A stretch of DNA of 64,000 bases from Aminobacter anthyllidis (GTDB lineage: Bacteria; Pseudomonadota; Alphaproteobacteria; Rhizobiales; Rhizobiaceae), in NCBI RefSeq assembly GCF_018555685.1, contig NZ_JAFLWW010000001.1, positions 682,001-746,000 on the forward strand. Reading direction: 5' to 3'. The position numbers and the translations under genes are program-made. Positions 575 to 51,079 of the stretch are shown in pieces (position 1 is the stretch's first letter; each line of letters begins with the position of its first letter). The notes beneath the pieces are model-generated. The model saw only the letters and a list, made by a program, of their open reading frames with translations. It was not told where the DNA came from and did no database searches.

Positions 575-594
575 CATCGTCCAAATGTGGGATG
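575..594 (+). promoter_or_regulatory. Operator-like motif, copy 1 (GGGATG subclass)
   Basis: CATCGTCCAAATGTGGGATG. It lies between the divergent acyl-CoA dehydrogenase (97 nt) and SDR (73 nt) genes. It differs at three central positions from copy 3 at 2517-2536. The regulatory role is inferred from recurrence. Confidence 0.65.
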
Positions 595-667
595 CTGGTA
601 CGCTGCCCCGGCTAGTCTACTCCGAGCCATCGGCCCGAAGCGGTCGCACGCTGCACGGGAGGTGACT

Positions 668-1435
668 ATGGCGCTCAAGCGTTTCGACAACAAGGTGGTG
701 CTCGTCACCGGAGCCGCATCGGGCATCGGCCGCGCCACGGCACTGCGCCTGGCCTGCGAGGGCGCGACGCTGATCCTCGCCGACCGCAACTTCGAAGGCG
801 CAAGGCAGGTCTGCGCCTTGGCCAGCGAACAGTTCGGAATCCGCGCGGATGCGCTTGCCTATGACGCTGCCGACAAGATTTCAGCGCGCAGGATGGTGGA
901 CGGCGCGCTCGCGCTCCACGGCCGCCTCGACAGCCTGATCAACAACGCCGGCATCTACCGGCGCGACCACTTCGCCAACCAGACCGGCGACGACTGGTCG
1001 CTGGTGTTCGGCATCAATCTCGAAAGTGTCTTCCACATCGTGCATCAGGCTTTGCCGGCGCTCATCGCCTCGCGCGGCAATGTCGTCTCCACGGCATCCA
1101 CCGCAGGCCTGCAAGGCATCGCATATGCCGCAGCCTACGCCGCCTCCAAGGCCGGCATCATCGCCATGACCAAGTCGCTTGCGACTGAATACGCGCCCAA
1201 GGGCGTGCGCTTTAATGCCATTTGCCCCGGCCGGGTCCGCACTGAGATCGGCACCGGGCTGCAGCCGATCGAAGACCAGAATCATGATATCATGGTCAAG
1301 CCACCCAAGCTTGCCGGCAAGGAAAGCGGCGAGCCCGAAGACATCGCCAGCGCCTTCGCCTATCTGGCATCCGACGAGGCCTGTTTCGTCACCGGCGCGG
1401 TCCTGGTTGTCGACGGCGCCCAGACGGTCGGCTGA
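668..1435 (+). CDS. SDR-family oxidoreductase (classical)
   Basis: 255-residue NAD(P)-dependent short-chain dehydrogenase. The Rossmann motif TGAASGIG is at residues 14-21, NNAG near 92-95, and the catalytic Ser144, Tyr157 and Lys161 (YAASK) are intact. It probably oxidises or reduces a hydroxyl/keto group of a cyclic intermediate or a 3-hydroxyacyl-CoA; the substrate is not evident. The ATG at 668 follows a strong GGGAGGTG ribosome binding site. It is divergent from the acyl-CoA dehydrogenase and converges on the NTF2-like gene with a 7-bp gap. Operator copy 1 lies 73 nt upstream. Confidence 0.88.
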   Translation: MALKRFDNKVVLVTGAASGIGRATALRLACEGATLILADRNFEGARQVCALASEQFGIRADALAYDAADKISARRMVDGALALHGRLDSLINNAGIYRRDHFANQTGDDWSLVFGINLESVFHIVHQALPALIASRGNVVSTASTAGLQGIAYAAAYAASKAGIIAMTKSLATEYAPKGVRFNAICPGRVRTEIGTGLQPIEDQNHDIMVKPPKLAGKESGEPEDIASAFAYLASDEACFVTGAVLVVDGAQTVG

Positions 1436-1442
1436 GCGCGGT

Positions 1443-1856
1443 TCAGCTGGAGCGAAAGGTCATGTCGGTTCGCCGGTGGGCGAAGCGCCACCCGTCCATG
1501 GTGCGGACGAAGCGGTCGAAATAGCGGCCGACGACGCGCGGCACAGTCGCCTTCGGATCGTCGCAGCTGGTTCCGAAATAGGCGAATGCGGCGACGCCGG
1601 TGGCGTGGTTCTCGTCAACCAAATCGATGACGATGTTGTGGGCGATGTGGATCGTCGTGTCGGTCTGAGCCTTGGCGTCGAGATAGGCGCGCATCTCGGC
1701 ATGACCGTTGAGCGGGCCCTTCCAGGTCTCCCACAGTCCGTCAGCCGCCCACAGCGCCACAAGTTCTTCGTGCCTGTATTCGTCGACAAGGATACAGTAG
1801 CGCTGCACCAGCTTGGCGCATTCGTGCTCGGCCGCGATCCGCTCTGCCAGGTCCAT
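1443..1856 (-). CDS. SnoaL/NTF2-like protein
   Basis: 137-residue protein of the cone-fold SnoaL-like (NTF2) superfamily, which includes ketosteroid isomerases, scytalone dehydratases and non-catalytic members. The N-terminal helix pattern (CAKLVQRYCILVDE) and the end (GWRFAHRRTDMTFRSS) fit family members that act with SDR catabolic enzymes. Function cannot be read from sequence; an isomerase or dehydratase acting on a cyclic intermediate is a guess from the neighbours. ATG at 1856 after GGGGAGGACTGA. It is divergent from a second NTF2-like gene, with operator copy 2 between them. Confidence 0.75.
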   Translation of the reverse strand: MDLAERIAAEHECAKLVQRYCILVDEYRHEELVALWAADGLWETWKGPLNGHAEMRAYLDAKAQTDTTIHIAHNIVIDLVDENHATGVAAFAYFGTSCDDPKATVPRVVGRYFDRFVRTMDGWRFAHRRTDMTFRSS

Positions 1857-1906
1857 TCAGTCCTCCCCTGAAATCAGGCCAGCGTTGCGTCAGATCAAAG
1901 CAGCTT

Positions 1907-1926
1907 CATCCCCCAAACGAACGATG
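1907..1926 (-). promoter_or_regulatory. Operator-like motif, copy 2 (GGGATG subclass)
   Basis: Read on the minus strand: CATCGTTCGTTTGGGGGATG. It is placed almost centrally between two divergent NTF2-like genes, 50 nt from the left start and 56 nt from the right start, so one site could serve both. Confidence 0.65.
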
Positions 1927-1982: not shown

Positions 1983-2471
1983 ATGTCGGATATCGAAGCA
2001 CGGTTTGCGGCGCTGGAGGCGCGCATCAAGGGGCTGGAGGACCAGCTCGACATCTACCAGCTGTTTGCGACCTATGGCCCCTCTGTCGACAGCCGCACCG
2101 GCAGCGTCACGGCCTCGCTCTGGGCCAAGGATGGCACCTATGATTTCGGCGGCGACCCGCTTGTCGGTGCCGGGAACGTCGGCTCGCTGGTCGACATCGA
2201 GCCGCATATCCATTACGTCGCCGACGGCTGTGCCCATGTATTGAGCATGCCGCATATCGCTGTCGACGGCGACCGTGCGGTGGCGACAGGCTATTCGCGT
2301 GTCTACCTCAATCAAGGCGACCATTGGCGTGTCGAGCGTGCCAGCGCCAACCGCTGGGAACTTGTCCGCACCCCTGAAGGATGGCGGGTGCAGAACCGAG
2401 TCAATCGCTTGCTCGACGGCCAGCCGGAGGCCCGCGATTTGCTGTCGAGCGGAGTGACCCAGAGCAGCTGA
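1983..2471 (+). CDS. SnoaL/NTF2-like protein
   Basis: 162-residue SnoaL-like protein. It has an N-terminal heptad-like helix (IEARFAALEARIKGLEDQL), the usual DIYQLFATYGPSVDS first helix of the fold, then beta-strands rich in aromatic residues (IHYVADGCAHVL, GDRAVATGYSRVYL) and a WRVQNRVNRLL strand. Homologues often accompany SDR and aromatic/steroid degradation genes. Catalytic role and substrate are unknown. ATG at 1983 follows GAGGGCAAG. It is a distant paralogue of the divergent neighbour at 1443-1856. Confidence 0.72.
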   Translation: MSDIEARFAALEARIKGLEDQLDIYQLFATYGPSVDSRTGSVTASLWAKDGTYDFGGDPLVGAGNVGSLVDIEPHIHYVADGCAHVLSMPHIAVDGDRAVATGYSRVYLNQGDHWRVERASANRWELVRTPEGWRVQNRVNRLLDGQPEARDLLSSGVTQSS

Positions 2472-2516: not shown

Positions 2517-2536
2517 CATCGTCCGAACGTGGGATG
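2517..2536 (+). promoter_or_regulatory. Operator-like motif, copy 3 (GGGATG subclass)
   Basis: CATCGTCCGAACGTGGGATG, 47 nt before the SDR start at 2584. The stretch from CATC to GATG is imperfectly palindromic with a CGAACG centre. Confidence 0.68.
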
Positions 2537-2583: not shown

Positions 2584-3462
2584 ATGAATTCACTTCAAGG
2601 CAAGTCGGTGGTGATCACCGGCGCCGGGTCAGGGCTGGGAGCAGCCTATTCGCGCCATGCCGCGCGCCTTGGTGCTGCGGTCGTCGTCAACGACATCAGC
2701 GCCCAGGCGGCGCAGGCGACTGTCGATTCGATCATGGCTGCTGGCGGCAAGGCTGTTGCCCACGCTGGCGACGTCTCGTCCTGGAGCTATGCCCATTCGC
2801 TCGTCGATGCCTGCATCGACGCCTTCGGCGCCATATCAGGCATCGTCAACAATGCCGGCATCCTTCGGATCGGCAAGATCCTCGACCTCACCGAGGCTGA
2901 CATGCGCCGCATGGTCGAGATCAACCTCATCGGTACCGCCGCCTGCGCCAGCCACGCCGCGCGGCGCATGCTCGCCGCCGGCCAAGGGGGCTCGATCGTC
3001 AATGTCGCGTCGGGCTCTCAAGCCGGTGACGTCGCACTCGGCGGCTACGGTGCCACCAAGGGAGGGGTCGCTTCGCTGACCTACAGCTGGGCCATGGAGC
3101 TGCGCGGCTCGGGCGTGCGCGTCAATGCGCTGTCACCACTGGCCGAAACCGCAATGGCTGCCCAGAACAAGGCCTTGATGGCCGAGCAGGCCGCCAGCCG
3201 CGAGGTGCACTACGCCGCCCTGCCCGATCCCGAGATCAACGCGCCGGTCGTTAGCTTCCTGCTTTCCGATGCGTCGGAGAAGATCAACGGCCAGGTCGTT
3301 CGCATCGCCGGCAAGCAGCTGTCCTTCGTCACCCATCCGCTGATCGCCGATCCGGTGCTCGAAGGCGACTGGACCTACGCAGCCGTCGGAGCAGCCTTCG
3401 CCGAGACGTTGGCCGGCAAGCAGCAGCCGCTTGGCCTCGGCTATGCGAGGAAGCCGAATTGA
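2584..3462 (+). CDS. SDR-family oxidoreductase with C-terminal extension
   Basis: 292-residue classical SDR. TGAGSGLG is at 12-19, NNAG near 89-92, with catalytic Ser143, Tyr155 and Lys159 (YGATK). It is about 40 residues longer than a minimal SDR; the tail (WTYAAVGAAFAETLAGKQQPLGLGYARKPN) resembles that of 17-beta-HSD4-type SDRs acting on acyl-CoA or steroid substrates. The LSPLAETAMA segment replaces the usual PG motif. The ATG follows GGGAGGACACGCA. Translation of the next SDR is coupled by a TTGA overlap. Confidence 0.85.
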   Translation: MNSLQGKSVVITGAGSGLGAAYSRHAARLGAAVVVNDISAQAAQATVDSIMAAGGKAVAHAGDVSSWSYAHSLVDACIDAFGAISGIVNNAGILRIGKILDLTEADMRRMVEINLIGTAACASHAARRMLAAGQGGSIVNVASGSQAGDVALGGYGATKGGVASLTYSWAMELRGSGVRVNALSPLAETAMAAQNKALMAEQAASREVHYAALPDPEINAPVVSFLLSDASEKINGQVVRIAGKQLSFVTHPLIADPVLEGDWTYAAVGAAFAETLAGKQQPLGLGYARKPN

Positions 3463-4352: not shown

Positions 4353-4432
4353 CACAGATGCCAGACGACACAAATCCTGCATCACGGCAGGCTTACAGAA
4401 ACGCGAACCGTATTATATTCGATCCGGCCAGC

Positions 4433-4452
4433 AGCGTGCCCTTCGGGCGATT
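4433..4452 (-). promoter_or_regulatory. Weak half-conserved operator-like site before the TetR gene
   Basis: Read on the minus strand: AATCGCCCGAAGGGCACGCT. Twelve of the first 14 positions match copy 6 (CATCGTCCGAAGGG) but the right half does not. It lies 72 nt upstream of the TetR start and would fit weak autoregulation; it may be chance. Confidence 0.3.
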
Positions 4453-4524
4453 CGACCTCCGGTTGTCGAACAGTCCGGCGAGTATCCAGGGCGTGGAGCT
4501 GCGGCCTTGAGCAGGATAGCGCGT

Positions 4525-5262
4525 ATGGCACAGATGGACGGCGGCGCAGGCGCAGAATATCTAGATCGCGATGCTTCCGCGCGCGCGACAACCAATCCGC
4601 GCAAGGAGTTGGTGCGCGAGCAACTGATCGACATTGCCGCCGAGCTGTTCGACAGCAAGGGCTATGTCCAGACCAGCATCAACGACATCGCCCAGGCGCT
4701 CGGCCTCGGCCGTTCGGCGGTCTATCACTACTTCCGCAACAAGGAAGAAATGCTGGCGGCACTGGTCGAATCGGAGGCGCTGACGCCTTCGCACCGGCTG
4801 CAGGAACTGATGGCCGAGCCCGGCTTGTCGGCGTCGGAGCGGCTGCGCCGCGCCATCGTCGACGGCATCGTTCGCCGCCTCTCGTCAGGCTCGCGCTTCA
4901 TCCTCCTGTCGCGGCTCGAAACCCAGATTCCCGAAGCCCTCGGCCCGCTCTACAACCAGGGCCGCCGCCATATCTATGATTTCTATGTCCGCTGCATATC
5001 GGACGGGATCGCCAGCGGCGAGTTCCGGACCGTCGACCCCAAGGTCACGGCCTTCGCGGTGATCGGCATGGCCAACTGGACATCGCGCTGGTATTCCCCC
5101 TCGGGCGCAAAGACACCCCAGGAGATCGGCGAGATCATCGCTGACATGGCGCTTGCCGGCCTGCGCGCCCACGAAGACCGCCCACGCGACGCCGAAGCCG
5201 TGCGCCAGACGATCTCTGGCCTGCGCCAGCAGATCGACGAGCTGGAAAAACTGGTCAAATAG
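4525..5262 (+). CDS. TetR-family transcriptional regulator, KstR2-reminiscent
   Basis: 245-residue TetR repressor-type protein. The N-terminal helix-turn-helix spans about residues 35-80 (AAELFDSKGYVQTSINDIAQ, then LGLGRSAVYHYFRNKEEM). The C-terminal ligand domain carries NWTSRWYSPSGAKTPQEIG, which resembles the VRWYRPGGPLTAQQVG segment of mycobacterial KstR2, the HIP-CoA-responsive repressor of steroid C/D-ring genes; this is from memory. The C-terminus is a short coiled coil (TISGLRQQIDELEKLVK). ATG 4525 was chosen because AGGA lies 9 nt upstream and the TetR domain begins shortly after; the frame is open much further upstream but without homology. It is a candidate regulator of the operator set. 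Confidence 0.85.
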   Translation: MAQMDGGAGAEYLDRDASARATTNPRKELVREQLIDIAAELFDSKGYVQTSINDIAQALGLGRSAVYHYFRNKEEMLAALVESEALTPSHRLQELMAEPGLSASERLRRAIVDGIVRRLSSGSRFILLSRLETQIPEALGPLYNQGRRHIYDFYVRCISDGIASGEFRTVDPKVTAFAVIGMANWTSRWYSPSGAKTPQEIGEIIADMALAGLRAHEDRPRDAEAVRQTISGLRQQIDELEKLVK

Positions 5263-7269: not shown

Positions 7270-7289
7270 CATCGTCTGAAAAGACTACC
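7270..7289 (+). promoter_or_regulatory. Operator-like motif, copy 4
   Basis: CATCGTCTGAAAAGACTACC contains the inverted repeat GTCT-N4-AGAC. It lies 125 nt upstream of the minus-strand thiolase start, oriented as at other minus-strand units (CATCG end towards the gene). Confidence 0.68.
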
Positions 7290-10518: not shown

Positions 10519-11319
10519 TCAGGCAGCGCGAACGCCGGCAGGATTGCCCTTCAGCACCGTGGCGCGGACATTGTGCGGGTCGAGCCTGGCGATGATCGCC
10601 AGCTGTTCTTCGGTCGGTGCCGCCGTGGTGGTCATGCCTTCGGCACGCAGCAGCGGGAAACCGGTCGCCTCCTGCACCTGCTCGAAGGTCACGCCCGGAT
10701 GCAGCGACAGCACCTGGGCTGCATGGTCAGGACCGTTGAAGTCGAACACGCAAAGGTCGGTGATGACCACGCCGAGCTTGACGTCGGCAGGCTTGGCGCC
10801 TTCCGGCCAGTTCTTGGCGTTGTAGCCGACGCTTGCCACCACATCGACTTCACCTTCGACGAAGGTGCGCTTGGAGTGGTTGGGCAGGAACATCGAGTTC
10901 TTGTGGCAGATCGAATTACCCGGGAAACCGCGAACGCCCAGCATCGCCACCTTCGGCTTCTTGAAATCGCCGCCGAGAGCGGAGATGTTGCCCTGGCCGT
11001 AGCGATCGACCTGAACCGGCGTCACCATGGCATGGCGGCGGCCGCTCCAGACGCTGTCGAAGACGCGGCTGTAGGGCATCCAGCCGGAAAGCTTCGGCTT
11101 GTAGTCGCCGCGCGGTCCAAGCGGGATCGGGTCCTCGACGAGGTAGGCTTCGCCGTCGGTCATCATGATGCCCGGAGCGCAAGTCAGCTTGGCAAGGCCA
11201 GCCGCAAGGCGCGGCAACGGGCCGATGCCGGTGGCCAGAACTTCGCCATCCGCCGCCCAGGTTTGCGCGCCGGTGGCGATGATAAGTTCGGCAAGAGTGA
11301 ATTCTTTTGCAGTCGTCAT
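10519..11319 (-). CDS. ipdB: IpdB-like ring-opening hydrolase, beta subunit
   Basis: 266-residue class I CoA-transferase-fold protein. It carries the segments that I recall from IpdB of Mycobacterium (Rv3552): LTCAPGIMMTDGEA, WMPYSRVFDSVWSGRRHAM, QVDRYGQGNISALGG, GVRGFPGNSICH, and VFDFNGPDHAAQVLSLHPGV. IpdAB hydrolyses the last steroid ring (COCHEA-CoA) rather than transferring CoA. It lies 11 bp behind its partner ipdA. Ordinary PcaIJ/GctAB transferases lack several of these segments, so IpdB is preferred, though the exact ring substrate here is inferred. Confidence 0.85.
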   Translation of the reverse strand: MTTAKEFTLAELIIATGAQTWAADGEVLATGIGPLPRLAAGLAKLTCAPGIMMTDGEAYLVEDPIPLGPRGDYKPKLSGWMPYSRVFDSVWSGRRHAMVTPVQVDRYGQGNISALGGDFKKPKVAMLGVRGFPGNSICHKNSMFLPNHSKRTFVEGEVDVVASVGYNAKNWPEGAKPADVKLGVVITDLCVFDFNGPDHAAQVLSLHPGVTFEQVQEATGFPLLRAEGMTTTAAPTEEQLAIIARLDPHNVRATVLKGNPAGVRAA

Positions 11320-11330
11320 GTCGTATCCGA

Positions 11331-12209
11331 TCAGAAAATGGGGAGCGGCAGGGCGCGGATCTGGGCTTCGCCGCCCACGCTCGCGATGTAGCTGGCCTCA
11401 TCGCCCTTCACGTATTGGTCGACATAGCCCTGCCAGCCGCCCTCTTCGGTTGCCGACGCGGCATAGGCCTTGAGGTGCCCCATGTCCCAGCCATAGGCAT
11501 CGTGAGCCGCCGTCGGGTGTGCACCGAGCGGCGCCTTGACCACGCCGGTGACCAGGCAACGCTCGAACAGGTTCGACTTGGCCTTGTCGGAATATTCGTC
11601 GCCGATGCGGTCGACCAGAACTTCAGTGGTGACAAACACCTTGTCGGCGGCGCGTGCGAACAGGCCGTCGAAGAACGGGTCCGGACCATCGGTCTGGGTG
11701 TTGCCCAGCCGGTCGGCACGGCTGGTGTGTATCAAAGCCACGTCGAGCTTGATCGCGGGCATGGCGAGCAGCACTTCGCCGTCGTCATAGGGTGACTTCA
11801 CAGTCTTGAAGTGCGGATTGTACTTCATGACGTCCGAGCCAAGCCCGACGCGCGTCGCGGCGAACGGCAAATTGTGGCCGGCTGCCTGCAGGCCGAGCAG
11901 GAGGAGGCCTTCGTCCAGCTCGGAAACCTCGACTGCACCGGCTTCGCGCGCCTTGCGGAAATAGGGCTCGATCGGCATCGCATCGAGCGACACGAAGCCG
12001 TACATCAGTTTCTTGACCTTGCCGGCCGCACACAGCATGCCGATCTCGGGGCCACCATAGGCGACCAGCGTCAGGTCCTTGAGGTCCGAGCGCAGAATCT
12101 CGCGCACCAGCGCCATCGGCTTGCGGCGTGGACCCCAGCCGCCAAAGCCGATCGTCATGCCGTCGCGCAAATCGCCAACGACCGCTTTCAGGTCCATTTC
12201 CTTGTTCAT
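11331..12209 (-). CDS. ipdA: IpdA-like ring-opening hydrolase, alpha subunit
   Basis: 292-residue CoA-transferase-fold alpha subunit. Its N-terminal half matches what I recall of IpdA (Rv3551) closely: LRDGMTIGFGGWGPRRKPM, ALVREILRSD, VAYGGPEIGMLCAAGKVKK and YGFVSLD. The following SELDEGLLLLGLQAAGHNLPF block is also shared. With IpdB it should form the heteromeric hydrolase that opens the remaining ring during HIP-CoA (steroid C/D-ring) degradation. ATG at 12,209. It lies between a bifunctional FadB-like gene and ipdB. Confidence 0.86.
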   Translation of the reverse strand: MNKEMDLKAVVGDLRDGMTIGFGGWGPRRKPMALVREILRSDLKDLTLVAYGGPEIGMLCAAGKVKKLMYGFVSLDAMPIEPYFRKAREAGAVEVSELDEGLLLLGLQAAGHNLPFAATRVGLGSDVMKYNPHFKTVKSPYDDGEVLLAMPAIKLDVALIHTSRADRLGNTQTDGPDPFFDGLFARAADKVFVTTEVLVDRIGDEYSDKAKSNLFERCLVTGVVKAPLGAHPTAAHDAYGWDMGHLKAYAASATEEGGWQGYVDQYVKGDEASYIASVGGEAQIRALPLPIF

Positions 12210-15445: not shown

Positions 15446-15465
15446 CATCGTCTGATGGGACTAGT
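15446..15465 (+). promoter_or_regulatory. Operator-like motif, copy 5
   Basis: CATCGTCTGATGGGACTAGT, 84 nt upstream of the minus-strand quinone reductase operon. It forms a back-to-back pair with copy 6 in the same divergent region. Confidence 0.72.
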
Positions 15466-15515: not shown

Positions 15516-15535
15516 GTTAGTCCCTTCGGACGATG
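15516..15535 (-). promoter_or_regulatory. Operator-like motif, copy 6
   Basis: Read on the minus strand: CATCGTCCGAAGGGACTAAC, the best match to consensus, with the inverted repeat GTCC-N4-GGAC. It lies 52 nt before the SDR start at 15,588. Confidence 0.75.
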
Positions 15536-16361: not shown

Positions 16362-16381
16362 TTTAGTCTGTGCAGACGATG
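16362..16381 (-). promoter_or_regulatory. Operator-like motif, copy 7
   Basis: Read on the minus strand: CATCGTCTGCACAGACTAAA, with a perfect GTCTGTGCAGAC-type palindrome in the centre. It lies 65 nt before the CoA-ligase start. Confidence 0.72.
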
Positions 16382-16446
16382 TCCGGCTTTCCGGCCGGGT
16401 TCTCTAGTCGGCGCAGAATCCCAATTTCGACTGCAGGAATACGAGC

Positions 16447-17985: not shown

Positions 17986-18004
17986 GCCCGTAAGCGCCAA
18001 AGCG

Positions 18005-18033
18005 AAAGGCCGTGCACTGCGCAGCCTTTTCTT
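18005..18033 (+). terminator. Terminator after the CoA-ligase gene
   Basis: AAAGGC-rich stem pairing with GCAGCCTTTT, ACT loop, followed by TTTTCTTT on the plus strand; 20 bp after the ligase stop and before the convergent SDR gene. Confidence 0.65.
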
Positions 18034-18082
18034 TATCTGTCAGTATGTTGGCGATATTTTTTGATGAACCAATGGAGCTTTA

Positions 18083-24757: not shown

Positions 24758-24777
24758 CATCGTCCATGCGGACTAGC
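24758..24777 (+). promoter_or_regulatory. Operator-like motif, copy 8
   Basis: CATCGTCCATGCGGACTAGC with GTCC-N4-GGAC symmetry, upstream of the minus-strand transporter operon (134 nt to the start codon). Confidence 0.74.
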
Positions 24778-24817: not shown

Positions 24818-24837
24818 GGTAGTTCGTTTGCGGGATG
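24818..24837 (-). promoter_or_regulatory. Diverged operator-like motif, copy 9
   Basis: Read on the minus strand: CATCCCGCAAACGAACTACC; on the plus strand 16 of 20 positions equal copy 2. It lies 32 nt before the GMC oxidoreductase start. Confidence 0.5.
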
Positions 24838-27929: not shown

Positions 27930-27949
27930 CATCGTTCGATCGGGTGAGC
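27930..27949 (+). promoter_or_regulatory. Operator-like motif, copy 10 (GGGTGAGC subclass)
   Basis: CATCGTTCGATCGGGTGAGC, 52 nt before the hydrolase start. It is identical to copy 11, which is also 52 nt before its gene. Confidence 0.72.
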
Positions 27950-27983: not shown

Positions 27984-28008
27984 TTCAACAGATGAACCGT
28001 TCTGCTGC

Positions 28009-30035: not shown

Positions 30036-30055
30036 CATCGTTCGATCGGGTGAGC
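30036..30055 (+). promoter_or_regulatory. Operator-like motif, copy 11 (GGGTGAGC subclass)
   Basis: CATCGTTCGATCGGGTGAGC, identical to copy 10 and again 52 nt before the start codon of its gene (SDR at 29,983). Confidence 0.72.
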
Positions 30056-30060
30056 CCACG

Positions 30061-30090: not shown

Positions 30091-30115
30091 TTCAACAGAT
30101 GAACCGTTCTTCTGC

Positions 30116-31324: not shown

Positions 31325-31379
31325 AGTCTGGTCTCCACGGAAATCGATGCCGCCGTTTCGGCCTAACGCGATTGCCACA

Positions 31380-31399
31380 CATCGTCCATAAGGACCATT
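31380..31399 (+). promoter_or_regulatory. Operator-like motif, copy 12
   Basis: CATCGTCCATAAGGACCATT with GTCC-N4-GGAC symmetry, 55 nt before the binding-protein start. Confidence 0.7.
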
Positions 31400-31455: not shown

Positions 31456-31475
31456 CCTCACCCGATCGAACGATG
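31456..31475 (-). promoter_or_regulatory. Operator-like motif, copy 13 (GGGTGAGC subclass)
   Basis: Read on the minus strand: CATCGTTCGATCGGGTGAGG, 19 of 20 identical to copies 10 and 11. It lies 73 nt before the LLM monooxygenase start. Confidence 0.72.
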
Positions 31476-31548: not shown

Positions 31549-32697
31549 GTGAAATTTTCCATGATCTACGAGGCACAGATCGCCGAAACCCATCGCGAGG
31601 CCGAACAGCAGGTGTTTCGCGAGATGGCCGAGCAATGCGTCCAGCTCGACAGGCATGGTTTCGACGGCGTCTGGTGCGTCGAGCACCACGGATTGACCCA
31701 ATATTCGCACATGTCAGCGCCGGAGACGTTCCTGGCCTTCGTCGCCGGCCAGACGAAGAAGCTCGAGATCGGCCATGGCGTCGTCTGCCTGCCGCCGGCG
31801 ATGAACCACCCGATCAAGGTGGCCGAACGCGTCGCCATGCTTGACATCCTGTCGAACGGTCGCGTCAATTTCGGCGTTGGCAAGGGCGGCAGCCAGCAGG
31901 AAGCCGGCGCCTTCGGCTACCAGCTGTCCGACCTGCAGCCGCTGATCGACGAGAGCATGTACCTGATCCCACGCCTCTTCACCGAAGACAGCGTCGAGCA
32001 TGACGGCCAGTACATCAAGTTCCCCGCCCGCCCGGTGCACCCCAAGCCGCTGCAGCAACCGCATCCTCGCATGTACATGGCCTGCACGCGTTGGGAAGCG
32101 GTGGTGACGGCAGGTTCGCGCGGCCTCGGCGCACTGGTCATGGGTTTCGGCGGACCTGACGAGATCAAGACCAAGAGCGACGCCTATCGCAAGGCCTTCG
32201 CCGAGCGCAAGCCAGAGGATCAGGTCGGCTTCCGCCCGACCGAGCACCTGTCGGCGCTGTGCCCGGCCATCGTCATGCGCGACCGCGACAAGGCTCGCCG
32301 CATCGGCCTGCGCGGCCAGCGCTTCTTTGCCGAGGCTCTTTCCCACTGGTACCAGGGTGGCCCAAAGCCGAAGGTCGACGACATGAGCCCGCAAGAGCAT
32401 CTGGCCGCGCTCGACAAGGTGCGCGAGCACAAGTTCGCCAAGCTCGGCGAAGACAAGATCGCCTACAATCCACAGGCCTATGGCTATCTCGACGACATCA
32501 ACGATGCCTACGGCACGCCTGACGACTGCATCCGCTATGTCGAACGGCTGTTCGAGGCTGGCGCCGACGAGATCATGTTCCTGTCGCAGATGGGCACGGT
32601 ACCGCACGAAGCGATCATGGAAACGATCGAACTGATCGGCTCCGAAGTCATCCCCCATTTCCGCGGCAAGAAGCTGCGCGTCGCCGCTGCCGAATGA
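31549..32697 (+). CDS. LLM-class (luciferase-like) flavin monooxygenase
   Basis: 382-residue bacterial-luciferase-family protein. TIM-barrel features include KFSMIYEAQIAETHREAE, FDGVWCVEHHGLTQYSHMSA, LEIGHGVVCLPPAMNHPIKV and GRVNFGVGKGGSQQEAGAFG. Family members are the large component of FMNH2-dependent two-component monooxygenases, including type II Baeyer-Villiger enzymes. The start is GTG 31,549 after GCGGAGGAGCC; the in-frame ATG at 31,501 is upstream of this site. It converges with the FMN reductase across one shared terminator; both carry the same operator subclass. Confidence 0.88.
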   Translation: MKFSMIYEAQIAETHREAEQQVFREMAEQCVQLDRHGFDGVWCVEHHGLTQYSHMSAPETFLAFVAGQTKKLEIGHGVVCLPPAMNHPIKVAERVAMLDILSNGRVNFGVGKGGSQQEAGAFGYQLSDLQPLIDESMYLIPRLFTEDSVEHDGQYIKFPARPVHPKPLQQPHPRMYMACTRWEAVVTAGSRGLGALVMGFGGPDEIKTKSDAYRKAFAERKPEDQVGFRPTEHLSALCPAIVMRDRDKARRIGLRGQRFFAEALSHWYQGGPKPKVDDMSPQEHLAALDKVREHKFAKLGEDKIAYNPQAYGYLDDINDAYGTPDDCIRYVERLFEAGADEIMFLSQMGTVPHEAIMETIELIGSEVIPHFRGKKLRVAAAE

Positions 32698-32750
32698 TCC
32701 GTACACGCGACCGGTACATCCGGCCGGTCGCTTGTCTCTGCCATCAAACG

Positions 32751-32779
32751 AAAAGGCCGGCACTAGATGCCGGCCTTTT
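32751..32779. terminator. Bidirectional terminator
   Basis: AAAAGGCCGGCA ... TGCCGGCCTTTT perfect stem with an A/T tract on both sides, between convergent LLM and flavin reductase genes. Confidence 0.88.
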
Positions 32780-32804
32780 CATCTGTGGGTCTTACGAACC
32801 ATGG

Positions 32805-33302: not shown

Positions 33303-33364
33303 TTCGCGCTCCTCCTGCCGACGTCCTTCAATGAACGGATCATCGCGCAGGGCTCGCCTTGCGG

Positions 33365-33384
33365 CATCGTTCGAACGGGCGAGC
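33365..33384 (+). promoter_or_regulatory. Operator-like motif, copy 14 (GGGTGAGC subclass)
   Basis: CATCGTTCGAACGGGCGAGC, 62 nt before the flavin reductase start; it belongs with copies 10, 11 and 13. Confidence 0.72.
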
Positions 33385-33448
33385 CAAGCAACTCCAGGAA
33401 AAGTGTGGCGCGGTTTTCCGTGCGGAGTTGCGTCAGGGCGAGAAGCTG

Positions 33449-33485
33449 GAGCCTTGCCGCGTTTCGTAGAAAAGCGGAAAGGCTC
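33449..33485. terminator. Hairpin at the end of the LuxR gene
   Basis: GAGCCTTGCCGC pairs imperfectly with GCGGAAAGGCTC across TTTCGTAGAAAA, touching the LuxR stop codon. No T run follows on the minus strand; likely a weak terminator. Confidence 0.4.
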
Positions 33486-34618
33486 TAGCTCAGTTCGTCG
33501 ACCGAGCGCAAAAGCAGCCGGACCAGCTCGCTCTGCCTGGAAACGCCGGTCTTGGAAAACACCATGCGCAGATGTGCCTTGGCCGTGTTCTTGGTGACGC
33601 CGAGGGCTGCGCTGGCGTCGTCGAGGTCGAGGCCCTGCCCCATCAGTGCGGCGAGTTCGGCTTCGGCCGGCGTCAGGCCGAACAGCCGGACGAGGATCGC
33701 CGGCTGCGGCGCCACCGTGCTGCCGGCGTCGGCGATGATGACGAGTGCCGCCCCGCGCAATGGCGCATGCAGCTTGGCGGAATGTGGTGCCGGCCGGACG
33801 ACGAGGCCGAGCGCTTCGCCGCTGGAGCGATGGATCGAAAACGCCCGCGAGCCGGCAAAGGAGGCGGGGTCCGCTTCGGCGATCTCCGCGACGGCCGCGG
33901 TGAACGCACCGCTCGGACCTGCATCATCGAGCAGGCGCAGCCGGCCGCGGTCGTTCTTCAGCACGTCCTTTTCGGCCAGGATCGCCTCGGCCTGCGGCGT
34001 TGCCTGCAGGATGCGGCACTCCTTGTCGACGATGATCGCACCGACCGCCAGCCGTCCAAGCGCGCCGGCAAAAAGCTCGCGTTCGGATTCAAGGCCGTTG
34101 AGCCGCAGGAACAGGCTCATCGCTTGCGTCAGATGCGGCAGCAGCCGCTGGAACGTCTCGCGCTCACTTGTTCCGAAATTGTCGCGGCCCAGCACCCGCG
34201 TTGCGCGCATCCGCACCCTTGCACCCGACGCCTCGACGATATCGGCGCCCACGACATGCATCCAGCCAGAGCCGGTCATGAAATTTGTCATGAACTCCGA
34301 ATGCGAAAAACCTTCCTCGCCAACGAGCTCGGCCAGCGTCGTCACCTTGCCAAGCGGCAGGTCGATGAAGGGATCTTGCTTGTAAAGTGCATTGTAGCGG
34401 GCGATGCGTTCCTCGGAGGCCGCGCCGGAATAGATGGCGCCCGGCCTGTCGCGGCGCTGGCGCTCGATGATCAGCGTGCTGCTCTCGGCATCGACGGCCG
34501 CGCGCAACGCCTTGAGGAAACCGTCGAACGGACTGGCCTCGCTGATGCCGGCATAAAGCAACACGACCAGCTGGTCGTGATCGGGCACGGCGCCTTGAGC
34601 TTCCGCCCGATCGGCCAC
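33485..34618 (-). CDS. LuxR-type transcriptional regulator
   Basis: 377-residue regulator. Residues about 15-170 look GAF-like and about 180-300 PAS-like (LAVGAIIVDKECRILQATPQ); the C-terminal GerE/LuxR HTH (about 310-372) reads FGLTPAEAELAALMGQGLDL, then ALGVTKNTAKAHLRMVFSKT. No response-regulator receiver or acyl-homoserine-lactone domain is seen. In Comamonas testosteroni a LuxR-type activator (TeiR/TesR) controls steroid genes; this protein could act likewise and bind the 20-bp operator. The start is GTG 34,618, two nucleotides after the stop of the preceding SDR gene, so it is co-transcribed with it. Confidence 0.87.
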   Translation of the reverse strand: MADRAEAQGAVPDHDQLVVLLYAGISEASPFDGFLKALRAAVDAESSTLIIERQRRDRPGAIYSGAASEERIARYNALYKQDPFIDLPLGKVTTLAELVGEEGFSHSEFMTNFMTGSGWMHVVGADIVEASGARVRMRATRVLGRDNFGTSERETFQRLLPHLTQAMSLFLRLNGLESERELFAGALGRLAVGAIIVDKECRILQATPQAEAILAEKDVLKNDRGRLRLLDDAGPSGAFTAAVAEIAEADPASFAGSRAFSIHRSSGEALGLVVRPAPHSAKLHAPLRGAALVIIADAGSTVAPQPAILVRLFGLTPAEAELAALMGQGLDLDDASAALGVTKNTAKAHLRMVFSKTGVSRQSELVRLLLRSVDELS

Positions 34619-35511: not shown

Positions 35512-35531
35512 ATTCGTCCCTTCGGACGATG
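35512..35531 (-). promoter_or_regulatory. Operator-like motif, copy 15
   Basis: Read on the minus strand: CATCGTCCGAAGGGACGAAT, 17 of 20 identical to copy 6. It lies in the divergent region, 100 nt before the FadD3-like ligase and 87 nt before the SDR-LuxR unit. Confidence 0.72.
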
Positions 35532-35631: not shown

Positions 35632-37218
35632 ATGATATCAGAAGACGCCGACTGGAAATTCACCACCATTCAAAATCTCTGCGCGCGCGCAGCCGAAGTT
35701 TATGGCACGCGGATGGCGGTCGAGGATGGCGGCGTTACGTTGAACTTCGTCGAGCTCGACGCCATGCGCCGCCGCGTTGCGAAGGCGATGGTCGCCGCCG
35801 GCGTGCAGAAAGGCGACCGGATCATGATCTGGGCTCCCAACACCTGGCAGTGGTTCGCCACGGCGCTCGGCCTGGTTACCGCAGGCGCTGTCCTGATCCC
35901 GGCCAGCACGCGCTTCAAGGGCATCGAAATCGCCGAACTGGTCAAGCGCAGCGGCACCTCGATGCTGTTTTCTGCCGGTACGTTCCTGGGGACCTACTAC
36001 CCCGACCAGCTGAAGGCCGAAACGCGCGACACCCTGCGCCAGGTCGTGGTCATCGGCGATACACGCAACGGCGACCAGAACTGGGACAGCTTCGTTGCCG
36101 CAGGCGACGGCGTCAGCGACGCCGAGCTGGCCGAGCGCGAGGCGTCGGTCGGTCCCGACGATCTCTGCGACATGCTCTTCACCTCTGGCACCACGGGTTA
36201 CCCGAAGGGCGTCATGTACGGCCACCAGCAGTGCCTCAAGGCCATTGACGCTTGGGCGACGCGCGTCGGCATCCGCGAGCATGACCGCATCCTGGTCATC
36301 CCACCCTTCTTCCACGCTTTCGGCTACCGCTCGGGTGCCATCGTTTCGATGATGCGTGGCGCCGTTCTGATGCCGCACCTCACTTACGATGCCGGCGAGA
36401 TCCTCAAGCGCGTCTCGGAGGAAAAGATCAGCGTCATCCCCGGTCCGCCCGCCATTTTCCAGGGCATGCTGCAGCATCCTGAGTTGGCGAAGTTCGACAC
36501 GTCAAGCCTGCGCCTCGGCGTCACCGGCGGTGCGGTTGTGCCCTCGATCCTGATCCGCCGCATGCGCGAGGAACTCGGCTTTGCCGGCGTCGTCAACGGC
36601 TACGGCCTGACCGAATGCGGCGGCTACGGCACCATGTGCCTGGCGACCGACAGCGACGACGTCATCGCCAACACGGCAGGCAAGGCCGCACCCGGCGTCG
36701 AAGTCCGCATCATGGACGACCACAGGAATTTCCTGCCAGACGGCCAGCCCGGCGAGGTCGTCATCCGCGGTTACATCGTCATGAAGGGCTATTTCAACGA
36801 CCCCGAAGCGACCGCCAGGACCATCGACGCCGAGGGCTGGCTGCACACCGGCGACGTCGGCTACTTCGACGCGGACGGCAATTTGCGCATCGAGGACCGC
36901 CTCAAGGACATGTACATCACCGGCGGCTTCAACTGCTATCCGGCCGAGATCGAACGCATGCTCAGCACGCATCCGGCGATCGGCATCGTCGCCGTCATCG
37001 GCGTGCCGGACGAGCGTCTCGGCGAAGTCGGCAAGGCCTATGTGGTGCTTCGTCCAGGCACCAGCGCCACCGAAAAGGAAATCATCGACTGGTCGCGCGC
37101 CAACATGGCGAACTACAAATGCCCGCGCAGCGTCGAGATCCGCCCGTCACTACCGACCAGCCCTCAAGGCAAGGTGCTCAAGAACCTCTTGCGCGAAGAG
37201 GTCCCCCAAGACGCCTGA
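35632..37218 (+). CDS. fadD3: FadD3-like acyl-CoA ligase (HIP-CoA synthetase candidate)
   Basis: 528-residue AMP-forming ligase. P-loop LFTSGTTGYPKG at about 183-193, A5 YGLTECGG, hinge GWLHTGDVGYFDADGNL then EDRLKDMYITGGFNCYP, and catalytic Lys near 514 (PQGKVLKNLL). Segments IWAPNTWQWFATALGL, FFHAFGYRSG, LMPHLTYDAGE and ISVIPGPPAIFQGMLQHPE recall mycobacterial FadD3, which activates the steroid C/D-ring acid HIP; this is from memory and should be checked. It would start degradation of the last two rings, later opened by IpdAB. ATG 35,632 after ACAGGTAACC. Confidence 0.88.
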   Translation: MISEDADWKFTTIQNLCARAAEVYGTRMAVEDGGVTLNFVELDAMRRRVAKAMVAAGVQKGDRIMIWAPNTWQWFATALGLVTAGAVLIPASTRFKGIEIAELVKRSGTSMLFSAGTFLGTYYPDQLKAETRDTLRQVVVIGDTRNGDQNWDSFVAAGDGVSDAELAEREASVGPDDLCDMLFTSGTTGYPKGVMYGHQQCLKAIDAWATRVGIREHDRILVIPPFFHAFGYRSGAIVSMMRGAVLMPHLTYDAGEILKRVSEEKISVIPGPPAIFQGMLQHPELAKFDTSSLRLGVTGGAVVPSILIRRMREELGFAGVVNGYGLTECGGYGTMCLATDSDDVIANTAGKAAPGVEVRIMDDHRNFLPDGQPGEVVIRGYIVMKGYFNDPEATARTIDAEGWLHTGDVGYFDADGNLRIEDRLKDMYITGGFNCYPAEIERMLSTHPAIGIVAVIGVPDERLGEVGKAYVVLRPGTSATEKEIIDWSRANMANYKCPRSVEIRPSLPTSPQGKVLKNLLREEVPQDA

Positions 37219-43321: not shown

Positions 43322-43341
43322 AATCGTCCAAAGGGACTAAC
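43322..43341 (+). promoter_or_regulatory. Operator-like motif, copy 16
   Basis: AATCGTCCAAAGGGACTAAC, differing from copy 6 at two positions. It lies 68 nt before the ATG of the hydratase-led operon and just after the aldo/keto reductase stop. Confidence 0.74.
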
Positions 43342-49032: not shown

Positions 49033-49911
49033 TCACACCCGCCTTGCGCCGACGCGACCGAACAAGCCTTGCGGCCTGAACATCAAGATGATCACCAGCA
49101 CCAGAAGCGATGCCAGGTCCTGGTAGGCGCCGCCGACCTTGTAGGCCGTCAGCATGGCGACGACGCCGACAAGTGGGCCGCCGATCAGCGTGCCGGCGTT
49201 GGAGCCGATGCCGCCAACCACGGCTGCAACGAAGCCGTTGAGCACGTATTTCAGGCCGGCGTCGGGGCTGACCGAGATCACCGGAGCGACGAGGAAGCCG
49301 ACGGTACCGACCATCAGGCCGCTGATGGCGAACGAAATCAGCTGCAGGCGGCGAACCGGCAGGCCAGCTGCCCGTGCGGCGTCGAAGTCCTGCGACAGCG
49401 CGCTGATGGCGAGCCCGATGAAGGTCTTGCGCAGGAAGAAGCGCAACGCGAAGAACCAGAAGATCATTGCCGCAATCGCCAGCGCATAAGCACCCGGCGT
49501 GCGCGTGCCGAGGATGCGGAAGCTCGGCACCACGCTCTGGACAGAATACGCAAACGGCCCCTGCGTGATCATCAGGAGTGCCGCGACGATGACCGAGACC
49601 GAAACCGTCGAGATCAGCCAGCTGTCCTGCTCGACCGAGGAGCGCAGCGGCAGCAGCGTGATGTAGCCCTGGATGGTGACCAAGGCGGCGATCAGCAGCC
49701 CGGCCAGCACAAGCATCAGCGTCCACTGGCCGAACCCCACTTGGTTGGCCAGGAAATAGGCGGCGAAACCGCCCAGGATGAACATGTTGCCCTGGGCAAA
49801 ATTGAAGATGTTCGTCGCACCATGAACGATATTGAAGCTCATCGCGATGGTGGCGAAGATCGACCCTATGGCGATCCCACGTATCACGATGATCAGTATT
49901 TCACTGAGCAT
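49033..49911 (-). CDS. Branched-chain-type ABC permease (LivH)
   Basis: 292-residue membrane protein: EILIIVIRGIAIGSIFATIA, MSFNIVHGATNIFNFAQGNM, and the EAA-like loop AISALSQDFDAARAAGLPVRRLQLISF. About eight membrane segments. With the fused LivM-LivG and LivF proteins it forms a complete importer core, but no binding protein is in the operon. ATG 49,911 after GGGAGGCGAGCTT. It is the first gene of the six-gene operon running to the aldo/keto reductase; operator copy 17 lies 120 nt upstream. Confidence 0.9.
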   Translation of the reverse strand: MLSEILIIVIRGIAIGSIFATIAMSFNIVHGATNIFNFAQGNMFILGGFAAYFLANQVGFGQWTLMLVLAGLLIAALVTIQGYITLLPLRSSVEQDSWLISTVSVSVIVAALLMITQGPFAYSVQSVVPSFRILGTRTPGAYALAIAAMIFWFFALRFFLRKTFIGLAISALSQDFDAARAAGLPVRRLQLISFAISGLMVGTVGFLVAPVISVSPDAGLKYVLNGFVAAVVGGIGSNAGTLIGGPLVGVVAMLTAYKVGGAYQDLASLLVLVIILMFRPQGLFGRVGARRV

Positions 49912-50031
49912 AAGCTCGCCTCCCTGACCACACTTATGAACCCGCCCTTGCCTGCACCGCGGGCAAGCCCGGAACGCTGACGAAGAAGGGGTATTTTGAG
50001 GTCAGCTTATGCGTGGCAGCCGTGGTCGCAA

Positions 50032-50051
50032 CATCGTTCGAACGGACTAAC
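50032..50051 (+). promoter_or_regulatory. Operator-like motif, copy 17
   Basis: CATCGTTCGAACGGACTAAC, combining the TTCGAAC centre of one subclass with the GGACTAAC end of another. It lies 120 nt before the LivH operon. Confidence 0.73.
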
Positions 50052-50165
50052 GAAAAATGCTTGCAATGGCGGCATTTGATCACCCGCCATGGAGACATCG
50101 AACGGCCAGCGTCCGGATGCTTCACCGCCACCAGACCGGCATCCGCAACCGCAACGTCGGTGATG

Positions 50166-51002
50166 TCACGAGAAACAGCTTCTGGTCGTGTCGAACGACA
50201 ACTTGGCCGCTTTTTGCAGGTCGAGCGCCGCGAGGTCAGGCGAAATCACTTCGATGCTGAAAGGTACGGCAACGCCCATGGCATCAAGCGTTGCGGCAAA
50301 GCCGGCTAGATCGAAACCACCCTGCCCGCACAGTCTGCGGTTCATCGTTTCCGAAGCGAGCGCTCCCGTCGGCATCGCGTCGGCGTCGTTGACCTGAACG
50401 CACAGCACCTTGTCGGCAGGTATCCGCTTGAGATCCGCAAGCGGCATACCAGCACGGAAGACATGCCACGAATCGATGACCAGGCCGGCGTTGGGAATTT
50501 CGCCAATGATTGCCAGTGCCGTGTCGACGTCCTTAACATTGCCCCAGGCAACCAGTTCCAGTGCGATGGCGATGTCATGCGCGGCAGCCCGGCCGCAGAG
50601 CGCGCGAAACCGCTGCTGCATCGTGTCCAGCGGGATGCCGCGCCCGCCAAGATCGGGACCGACATTGAGCACCTTGGCGCCGAAGGCCGTGGCCGCCCTG
50701 AAAGCCGTCTCCTCGTTGCGGCGCGAAAGCAGCCCCGCCTCACCGTCCATGAACCAGTCGGTAAGGAACTCGACCGAAACGTGCTTCATGCCATGCACTT
50801 CGAGGATGGAACGCAGCTCGCCGTCACCGAAACCGCGCGCCCGCTGCTCGGCATAATCGCGGAAATGCAGGCACATGCCGGTGTAGCCTGCTGTGGCACA
50901 TGCCTCGACTCGGGACGCAAAACCATGGCGCGATGCCACCGGGCTGCCGGGCATCACGCCGCTGACGGTATGCGAGCTGCAGATGAATTCGCGTGATTTC
51001 AT
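50166..51002 (-). CDS. Xylose-isomerase-like TIM-barrel protein
   Basis: 278-residue AP-endonuclease-2/sugar-phosphate-isomerase-fold protein. Barrel strands and metal-ligand candidates are visible in CLHFRDYAEQ, HVSVEFLTDWF, LNVGPDLGGRG, IALELVAWGNVKDVDTALAI, LVIDSWHVFRAG and VNDADAMP, with Glu, Asp and His in the usual places. Many such proteins are isomerases or dehydratases of sugars, inositols or cyclic acids; function is not identifiable. ATG 51,002 after GGGAACATC. It is a single-gene unit at the right edge of the island with a diverged operator upstream. Confidence 0.8.
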   Translation of the reverse strand: MKSREFICSSHTVSGVMPGSPVASRHGFASRVEACATAGYTGMCLHFRDYAEQRARGFGDGELRSILEVHGMKHVSVEFLTDWFMDGEAGLLSRRNEETAFRAATAFGAKVLNVGPDLGGRGIPLDTMQQRFRALCGRAAAHDIAIALELVAWGNVKDVDTALAIIGEIPNAGLVIDSWHVFRAGMPLADLKRIPADKVLCVQVNDADAMPTGALASETMNRRLCGQGGFDLAGFAATLDAMGVAVPFSIEVISPDLAALDLQKAAKLSFDTTRSCFS

Positions 51003-51059
51003 GATGTTCCCGGGTGGTGCTGCCGTCGATGCCCAAAATGTCCCTCCAACAACCGGCAT

Positions 51060-51079
51060 ACAGGTCCATTCGGACTAGA
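51060..51079 (+). promoter_or_regulatory. Diverged operator-like motif, copy 18
   Basis: ACAGGTCCATTCGGACTAGA matches copy 8 at 14 of 20 positions, keeping the GTCC-N4-GGAC core and the ACTAG end but not the CATCG end. It lies 57 nt before the TIM-barrel gene and is the last copy recognised. Confidence 0.5.

What the first reader, a model, noticed from the sequence alone, without database searches (positions are those of the whole stretch)
575..51079. A 20-bp operator-like motif precedes nearly every transcription unit of a 50-kb catabolic island
CATCGTYCGAWSGGRCKARC-like sequences occur at 575, 1907, 2517, 7270, 15446, 15516, 16362, 24758, 24818, 27930, 30036, 31380, 31456, 33365, 35512, 43322, 50032 and 51060 (start positions). 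Every copy is intergenic and most lie 47-73 nt before a start codon; the core is GTYC-N4-GRAC. In the 13 kb after 51,079 none was recognised. This looks like a single-regulator regulon with a dedicated binding site. I do not recall a described operator of this sequence, but that cannot be checked here.
Basis: seen in the sequence. Interest (0 to 1): 0.88.

Follow-up and report, generated by a model that had tools for sequence, protein, structure and literature searches.

The report
Steroid-degradation switch site for LuxR regulators
A repeated 20-letter DNA signal sits in front of nearly every gene group of a bacterial steroid-breakdown region, and it looks like the docking site of a switch protein that turns these genes on, in this bacterium and in distant relatives.

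Summary
The motif is real. A matrix from the 18 listed sites ranks them as the window's 18 best places, all intergenic, none after 51,079; 17 hold up, 51060 is doubtful. The island, in an Aminobacter-like genome, carries genes for the last two steroid rings: IpdAB- and FadD3-type and, just upstream, IpdC- and EchA20-type. Read toward the gene, the site is about NNTMGTYC-N4-GGACGATG, and a -10-like hexamer starts some 20 bp after it, so it centres near -42.5: activator geometry. The likeliest binder is not the window's TetR but a LuxR-type protein 8 kb before the window, of the TeiR/TesR kind. Sites accompany its orthologs in 30 of 30 fetched loci (124 intergenic, 1 coding) and relatives 35-42% identical in 15 of 22 loci, Beta- and Gammaproteobacteria included; the six whole genomes among these lack an ortholog-grade TetR. 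A site variant surrounds the window's own LuxR, beside a luciferase-like monooxygenase. I found no such operator in the paper listings and passages seen. Binding and activation are inferred, not shown.

The parts
575..594 (+). operator site before the SDR gene 668-1435 (variant with arm GTGGGATG)
   Evidence: 20.5 bits, intergenic; LOO 17.6; conserved in congeners
1907..1926 (+). operator site between divergent SnoaL-like genes 1443-1856(-) and 1983-2471(+)
   Evidence: conserved in congeners
2517..2536 (+). operator site before the SDR-SDR-TetR unit 2584-5262
   Evidence: conserved in congeners
7270..7289 (-). operator site before the thiolase/glyoxalase-like unit 7144-5310(-)
   Evidence: conserved in congeners
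15446..15465 (-). operator site before the 15292-7374(-) unit (ipdAB-like, 3HCDH/ECH, acyl-CoA dehydrogenase)
   Evidence: conserved in congeners
15516..15535 (+). operator site before SDR 15588-16343
   Evidence: best genome-wide hit of both models, and not among the training sites of R2
16362..16381 (+). operator site before acyl-CoA ligase 16447-17985; -10-like TCTAGT at 16403-16408
   Evidence: conserved in congeners
24758..24777 (-). operator site before the ABC-transporter unit 24623-18083(-)
   Evidence: conserved in congeners
24818..24837 (+). operator site before GMC oxidoreductase 24870-26474; weak on its own (LOO 4.8)
   Evidence: orthologous sites of 16-19 bits in five congeners
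27930..27949 (-). variant operator (GCTCACCCGATCGAACGATG) before hydrolase/SnoaL unit 27877-26479(-)
30036..30055 (-). variant operator before SDR/binding-protein unit 29983-28009(-)
31380..31399 (-). operator site before binding protein 31324-30116(-)
   Evidence: conserved in congeners
31456..31475 (+). variant operator before luciferase-like monooxygenase 31549-32697
33365..33384 (-). variant operator (GCTCGCCC arm) before flavin reductase 33302-32805(-)
35512..35531 (+). operator site before the FadD3-family ligase 35713-37218; may also serve the SDR/LuxR-1 unit 35424-33485(-)
   Evidence: conserved in congeners
43322..43341 (-). operator site before the 43253-37414(-) unit (enoyl-CoA hydratase, two acyl-CoA dehydrogenases, thiolase)
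   Evidence: AATCGTCCAAAGGGACTAAC and close forms also in several other genera
50032..50051 (-). operator site before the 49911-43369(-) unit (ABC transporter, thioesterase, GMC, aldo-keto reductase)
   Evidence: same 20-mer in L116 and L126
   Evidence: LOO 1.4; weak counterpart in one of two congener stretches that cover the place; context
33485..34588 (-). LuxR-1: LuxR-type regulator, 367 aa, beside the luciferase-like monooxygenase and flavin reductase
   Evidence: GerE below cut-off (19.8 of 23.5 bits); HTH aligned with LuxR-2
4525..5262 (+). TetR-family regulator (TetR_N, TetR_C_24)
   Evidence: orthologs
4451..4470 (+). TTCGAC-N8-GTCGAA palindrome before the TetR gene, a possible separate TetR operator
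   Evidence: found with 2 or fewer mismatches in 7 of 7 same-genus orthologs, not in the other 21 except one chance-level match
10519..12209 (-). ipdB-like and ipdA-like CoA-transferase pair
   Evidence: best PDB matches 6con_B (8.9e-53) and 6co6_A (5.9e-81)
35713..37218 (+). FadD3-family acyl-CoA ligase
   Evidence: NF005801 662.1 bits, cut-off 657
31549..32697 (+). luciferase-like monooxygenase
   Evidence: PF00296
40080..42322 (-). paired acyl-CoA dehydrogenases

Best explanation
The 20-bp sequence is the operator of a LuxR-type activator of steroid catabolism. In the direction of the controlled gene it reads about NNTMGTYC-N4-GGACGATG, an imperfect palindrome whose ideal form is CATCGTCC-N4-GGACGATG. 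The main binder is most likely LuxR-2, a protein with a PAS-like (perhaps also GAF-like) sensor part and a C-terminal LuxR helix-turn-helix, encoded about 8 kb before the window (G000:C1:672534-673598). It would bind as a dimer centred near -42.5, over the -35 place, and recruit RNA polymerase when its sensor part detects a steroid or a degradation intermediate. LuxR-1 in the window is probably a paralog that uses the same operator or its local variant (GCTCRCCCGWTCGAACGATG) around the luciferase-like monooxygenase module. Shown by computation: the motif, its placement, its conservation, the spacing to a -10-like hexamer, and its company with this LuxR family. Inferred: binding, activation, the ligand, and the division of labour between the paralogs.
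For: (1) Sites: the 18 rank first in the window and are intergenic; 16 of 18 stay at 13.8 bits or more when left out of the matrix. (2) Geometry: a -10-like hexamer scores best about 17-22 bp after the site in the gene direction: 14 non-redundant site-gene pairs of the window, 33 of six genomes with the window included, 66 of 26 other alphaproteobacterial loci, and 24 of other orders and classes, where the best offset is exactly 20 in 13 of 24; 0 of 2000 rotations reached the observed value in each set. The sets overlap a little: the 33 hold the window's, and L121 of the 26 loci is the same contig as G023's. This puts the centre near -42.5. (3) LuxR company: 30 of 30 loci fetched around LuxR-2 orthologs carry sites, 124 intergenic and 1 coding at 16 bits or more; five of the 30 are contigs also seen as G002, G003, G004, G007 and G023. 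(4) Other orders and classes: of 22 loci around LuxR relatives, 15 carry 36 intergenic sites of 16 bits or more and 7 carry none; the LuxRs with sites are 35-42% identical to LuxR-2 over two thirds of its length. The six whole genomes among the 15 that could be searched (G881, G896, G1093, G1076, G777, G698) have no ortholog-grade TetR (best E 4e-21 to 4e-12, against 1e-104 or better for the 20 orthologs). (5) A TetR relative in G134 (45% identical) has no intergenic site of 14 bits in the 33 kb around it. (6) LuxR relatives with a clearly different recognition helix have no sites nearby; on a tree of 56 LuxRs the presence of sites needs 5 changes against 10.3 in shuffles, 0 of 500 as low. (7) LuxR-1 is not needed: sites persist in G004 and G023. 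(8) The variant site occurs 20 times, only in the six genomes with LuxR-1 or its remnant. (9) TeiR/TesR, LuxR-type, is needed for induction of steroid genes in Comamonas testosteroni (passages of PMC8700777 and PMC6678751).
Against: No binding or expression data. The TetR is also conserved in 20 of 23 genomes with LuxR-2 orthologs, so inside Rhizobiales the two cannot be told apart by company, and a TetR that diverged fast could escape the profile elsewhere. For the plasmid records TetR was sought only in the 25-31 kb stretch. 11 of 56 LuxR relatives have no site of 16 bits within 10 kb of the fetched DNA, including L192-L194, whose helices are rather similar. The genome-wide concentration is partly by construction: 10 of the 17 distinct R1 hits are its own training sites; of the 7 new ones 2 lie in the 12 kb before the window and 5 elsewhere, 2 of these in CDS. 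TeiR is reported as a membrane protein with kinase activity, which does not suit a simple DNA-binding activator. Searches scored at most 5 candidates per genome.
Confidence: 0.8

Rival explanations
1. The motif is the operator of the window's TetR, a KstR2-like repressor lifted by a CoA-thioester intermediate.
For: TetR orthologs travel with the island in 20 of 23 genomes; TetR operators are often palindromes of about 20 bp (recalled); KstR2, a TetR, controls HIP genes in actinobacteria; distant sequence similarity to KstR2 (E 1.4e-11, with 13 better matches). A site stands before the SDR-SDR-TetR unit (2517).
Against: Six whole genomes carry the site beside LuxR genes but no ortholog-grade TetR. 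The TetR relative of G134 has no intergenic site near. The motif is missing (under 11 bits) from the 330 bp before the TetR gene in 26 of 28 orthologs. The TetR promoter of the same-genus genomes has another palindrome. A fixed centre near -42.5 is typical of activators (recalled).
Confidence: 0.1
2. The window's LuxR-1 is the single regulator of the whole island.
For: It lies inside the island in a unit next to a site (35512), and its recognition helix resembles that of LuxR-2.
Against: Not found in G004 and G023, truncated in G003, with the main sites intact there; LuxR-2 is present in all eight genomes compared.
Confidence: 0.05
3. The motif is a promoter element of an alternative sigma factor rather than an activator site.
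For: Fixed spacing to the -10-like hexamer and mostly fixed orientation (64 of 74 single-gene sites in alphaproteobacterial loci).
Against: It is a palindrome of about 20 bp, some divergent gene pairs seem to share one site (1907, 35512), and it goes with a LuxR family across classes. No sigma-factor gene was looked for.
Confidence: 0.03

Closest known systems
TeiR/TesR of Comamonas testosteroni (LuxR-type activator of steroid degradation)
   Same: LuxR-type regulator coded in a steroid gene cluster and needed for induction of most identified steroid genes (passages)
   Different: No operator sequence for it was seen in the listings and passages that I could search; identity of LuxR-2 to TeiR itself was not measured; TeiR is reported as a membrane protein with kinase activity
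pdc cluster of Caenibius tardaugens (Baeyer-Villiger enzyme, LLM, LuxR- and TetR-type genes, flavin reductase nearby)
   Same: LuxR-type gene next to a luciferase-like monooxygenase and near a flavin reductase, as at 31549-34588 here (passages)
   Different: In pNL2 of Novosphingobium aromaticivorans, which holds a pdc-type LLM/LuxR pair, the best place is one of 11.9 bits, 79 nt before the LLM gene; Novosphingobium ES2-1 has none of 11.5 or more
KstR2 regulon of actinobacteria
   Same: Controls ipdAB, ipdC, echA20-type HIP genes (passages)
   Different: TetR-type repressor with another operator (operator recalled); here the evidence points to a LuxR-type activator
lux box of quorum-sensing LuxR proteins
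   Same: 20-bp palindrome centred near -42.5 (recalled)
   Different: Different sequence; no autoinducer-binding domain among Pfam matches at E<=0.001 of LuxR-1 or LuxR-2

Membership tests
LuxR/GerE-type regulators (LuxR-2) | C-terminal GerE helix-turn-helix | tested here: met
   PF00196 30.8 bits, cut-off 23.5
LuxR/GerE-type regulators (LuxR-1) | C-terminal GerE helix-turn-helix | tested here: inconclusive
   PF00196 19.8 bits, below cut-off 23.5; aligns with LuxR-2 over the helix
PAS-LuxR regulators | PAS sensor domain before the HTH | tested here: inconclusive
   PAS 21.1 bits, cut-off 22.6; a moderate model of the L102 ortholog (mean pLDDT 73, pTM 0.47) matches phytochromes, VqmA, SdiA and EL222, all with low TM-scores
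TeiR/TesR-type steroid regulators | Coded within a steroid catabolic cluster | tested here: met
   IpdAB-, IpdC-, EchA20-, FadD3-type genes around it
TeiR/TesR-type steroid regulators | Sequence orthology with TeiR/TesR | not tested
   No named TeiR sequence was available to me; the 2004 paper is not held
TeiR/TesR-type steroid regulators | Required for steroid-induced expression | not testable with these tools
   needs mutants
Class II activator-dependent promoters | Activator site centred near -41 to -43 | tested here: met
   Inferred from -10-like hexamers only; starts not mapped
KstR2 regulon | TetR-type regulator as the binder of the shared operator | tested here: inconclusive
   Sites occur without an ortholog-grade TetR in six whole genomes, but the TetR is kept with the island in 20 of 23 others; binding not tested
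Quorum-sensing LuxR | Autoinducer-binding domain | tested here: not met
   Not among Pfam matches at E<=0.001 of LuxR-1 or LuxR-2

The most novel reading that the evidence does not exclude
One operator, NNTMGTYC-N4-GGACGATG at -42.5, is the shared control signal of steroid catabolism in Alpha-, Beta- and Gammaproteobacteria, read by a family of TeiR/TesR-like LuxR activators. Paralogs within one genome have split it into variants, so that a sub-operator marks a side module (here a luciferase-like monooxygenase with a flavin reductase). The site could then be used to find unrecognised steroid genes in many proteobacterial genomes.
Probability: 0.6. Interest if true: 0.75.

Novelty: new member of a known kind. 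Interest (0 to 1): 0.62.

Why it matters
[quoted passage not shown] A defined operator, its predicted geometry and its predicted regulator make the question testable with one protein and one promoter. The site also gives a search key for steroid genes outside known clusters, such as the C3 locus of this genome.

Tried and rejected
Iterating the matrix at a low threshold drifted into coding hits (rounds 1-3), so only the first matrix was used. The bare core GTYC-N4-GRAC was dropped as a signal: 365 places genome-wide. A one-mismatch pattern scan of the own genome listed only its first places and was used just to pick loci. A search for a conserved TetR operator outside the same-genus genomes found nothing alignable. 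HsaB of the A/B-ring pathway was sought in the own genome: 5 hits, 0 over the cut-off, so complete ring degradation is not shown. Two Novosphingobium plasmids with LLM-linked LuxRs had no convincing site. Searching papers for stretches of the site listed 15 of 1,627 papers, all unrelated by title. R2 was trained on 58 promoters chosen for having a -10-like hexamer, so it is no evidence for that hexamer; 12 of the 58 come from this island, and 10 of its 16 own-genome hits at E<=0.11 are such training sites. Rows dropped: two LuxR rows of L184 whose translation ran into a repeat, and two duplicates (L106, L121), before the tree; six loci without any site (L192-L194, L197, L210, L213) were left out of the base counts, and are counted as misses in the text. 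The fold search gave only weak whole-chain matches. Intergenic calls come from my own script, except for the three annotated records.


Full report
OBSERVATION. The 18 sequences are present as stated. A matrix made from them ranks these 18 first in the window and all are intergenic; the next place scores 10.9 bits and is coding. Left out one at a time, 16 of 18 still score 13.8 or more. Site 24818 is weak alone (4.8) but is conserved in five congeners. Site 51060 (1.4) abuts a start codon and is not counted. Shuffled windows average 1.7 hits of 13 bits or more against 17 real, and one shuffle reached 20.4. Over 1.40 Mb of loci, the window and some overlapping stretches included, 245 hits of 16 bits or more were found, against 2 in the reversed sequences.

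GENOME-WIDE. The window is G000:C1:682001-746000. A sequence-only model of the 18 sites found 17 distinct places at E<=10 (only 150 of 1522 first-look candidates were scored). Ten are its own training sites in the window. Of the seven new ones, two lie in the 12 kb before the window, both intergenic, three are intergenic elsewhere (C12:568263, C3:109739, C3:112154) and two lie in CDS (C12:145548, C28:155688). A 48-bp promoter model gave 16 places at E<=0.11: 13 in the island, of which 10 were training sites and 3 were not, and 3 elsewhere. So new hits are few and lean to the island, but the test is partly circular. The C3 sites stand before a gluconolactonase-like and an FAD-dependent monooxygenase-like gene, near a thiolase and an acyl-CoA ligase.

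WHAT THE ISLAND DOES. Pfam, NCBIfam and PDB comparisons give an IpdA/IpdB-like CoA-transferase pair at 11331-12209 and 10519-11319 (best matches 6co6_A at 5.9e-81 and 6con_B at 8.9e-53; that these entries are IpdAB is recalled), a FadD3-family ligase over its cut-off, paired acyl-CoA dehydrogenases (best PDB match of one of them 4x28), many SDRs, GMC oxidoreductases and branched-chain-type ABC transporters. In the 20 kb before the window lie a nitronate-monooxygenase-family protein (IpdC-like by family and place), an enoyl-CoA hydratase over the PRK07938 cut-off (that this is the EchA20 type is recalled), an old-yellow-enzyme-type protein and a MaoC protein. This resembles the gene set for the last two steroid rings (PMC5380842, passages). 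HsaB was not found over its cut-off, so A/B-ring degradation is not shown. The closest named relatives at LuxR-2 are Aminobacter ciceronei and A. carboxidus, 93-94%.

WHICH REGULATOR. Three candidates: the window TetR, the window LuxR (LuxR-1), and a second LuxR about 8 kb before the window (LuxR-2, L039:10534-11601). Among 61 genomes, LuxR-1 is full-length in G000, G001, G002, G007 and G009, truncated in G003, not found in G004 and G023; ortholog-grade TetR and LuxR-2 occur in all eight. Sites are kept in G003, G004 and G023, so LuxR-1 is not needed. Thirty loci around LuxR-2 orthologs, from Aminobacter, Microvirga, Bradyrhizobium, Devosia, Aquibium, Nitratireductor, Pseudaminobacter and alphaproteobacterial MAGs, all carry sites: 124 intergenic and 1 coding at 16 bits or more. 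The scan also held one locus around a TetR relative, L131, without any (104 kb intergenic and 488 kb coding DNA in all). TetR orthologs were found in 20 of 23 of the genomes that could be searched, so Rhizobiales alone cannot decide. The TetR relative of G134 (45%) has no intergenic site of 14 bits or more in 33 kb.

OTHER CLASSES SPEAK FOR LuxR. LuxR-2 relatives were found in 5 further genomes of a 385-genome class sample and 5 of a 398-genome phylum sample, one of them shared. Of the 16 stretches fetched around them, 11 have at least one intergenic site of 16 bits or more and 5 have none (L189, L192-L194, L197). Of 6 named plasmid records taken from the 42 hits have such sites (Cupriavidus necator, Caballeronia sp., Vibrio alfacsensis, and one of 17 bits in Burkholderia arboris) and 2 Novosphingobium have none. 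Together 15 of 22 loci carry 36 intergenic sites and at least 1 coding one (L214). The TetR profile finds no ortholog-grade match in the nine genomes searched (weak matches in 8, best E 4.3e-21). LuxR proteins with a clearly different recognition helix have no sites, and site presence follows the LuxR tree (5 changes, shuffles 10.3; near-copies help this number).

GEOMETRY. Read toward the gene, the conserved half GGACGATG is mostly proximal. A -10-like hexamer scores best about 17-22 bp after the site: the window (14 non-redundant pairs) and six genomes with the window included (33); 26 other alphaproteobacterial loci (66) and other orders/classes (24); none of 2000 random rotations reached the observed value in any set. 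The sets overlap slightly (the window within the 33; L121 is G023). With the hexamer at -12 to -7 the site spans about -52 to -33. This is the position of the lux box and of class II activators (recalled). The site covers the -35 place; -35 elements were not scored.

LuxR-1 AND THE VARIANT. Sites 27930, 30036, 31456 and 33365 share GCTCRCCCGWTCGAACGATG-type sequence. It occurs 20 times in all, only in the five genomes with LuxR-1 and in G003 with its remnant, not in the stretches of G004 and G023 or in 25 other loci. The congeners are syntenic, so these are not independent events. Sites 27930 and 30036 also share flanks and neighbour paralogous binding-protein genes, so part of this is local duplication. 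The module of LLM, flavin reductase and LuxR resembles the pdc cluster of Caenibius tardaugens (PMC12239570, passages).

TetR. Its same-genus promoters have a TTCGAC-N8-GTCGAA palindrome after a conserved TATTATA stretch (7 of 7 with 2 or fewer mismatches). It may repress itself and a smaller set; this is inference.

LITERATURE. Seven searches, for TeiR/TesR, LuxR and steroid degradation with binding site, palindrome, operator or motif, and for site letters, showed no such operator in what was listed; some were capped lists, and most subscription papers, including the 2004 TeiR paper, are not held. Papers were seen as passages only: PMC8700777, PMC8399759, PMC6678751, PMC12239570, PMC12882949, PMC5790920, PMC5380842.

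VERDICT. A real, island-wide operator, most likely of a TeiR/TesR-like LuxR activator of steroid catabolism, with the same site beside related LuxR genes in three proteobacterial classes. Binding and activation remain to be shown.

Noticed in passing
window 31549-34588: Luciferase-like monooxygenase, flavin reductase and LuxR-1 form a module like the pdc (progesterone) cluster of Caenibius tardaugens; not found in the stretches of G004 and G023, only a LuxR remnant in G003.
   Followed up: partly
window 4451-4470: Perfect TTCGAC-N8-GTCGAA palindrome before the TetR gene, conserved in same-genus genomes only.
   Followed up: partly
window 27880-31330: Two paralogous binding-protein genes (28009-29157 and 30116-31324), and near-identical flanks at sites 27930 and 30036, suggest a local duplication.
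   Followed up: no
L040:9739 and L040:12153 (G000:C3): Two strong intergenic sites outside the island by a gluconolactonase-like gene and an FAD monooxygenase-like gene, near a thiolase and an acyl-CoA ligase: a possible satellite steroid locus.
   Followed up: partly
L041:9262 (G000:C12:568263): Strong site between divergent LysR- and MarR-type genes, with no steroid genes recognised among those looked at.
   Followed up: partly
window 1443-1856, 1983-2471, 26479-26934; L039:12870-13505, 17591-18124: Five small SnoaL_4 (NTF2-like) proteins in one island, role not known.
   Followed up: no
window 8165-9235: APH/EcKL (ecdysteroid kinase-like) family protein within the unit that holds the ipdAB-like genes.
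   Followed up: no
window 51100-51140: Terminator-like hairpin with a T-run between the island end and the Bmp-type transporter unit.
   Followed up: no
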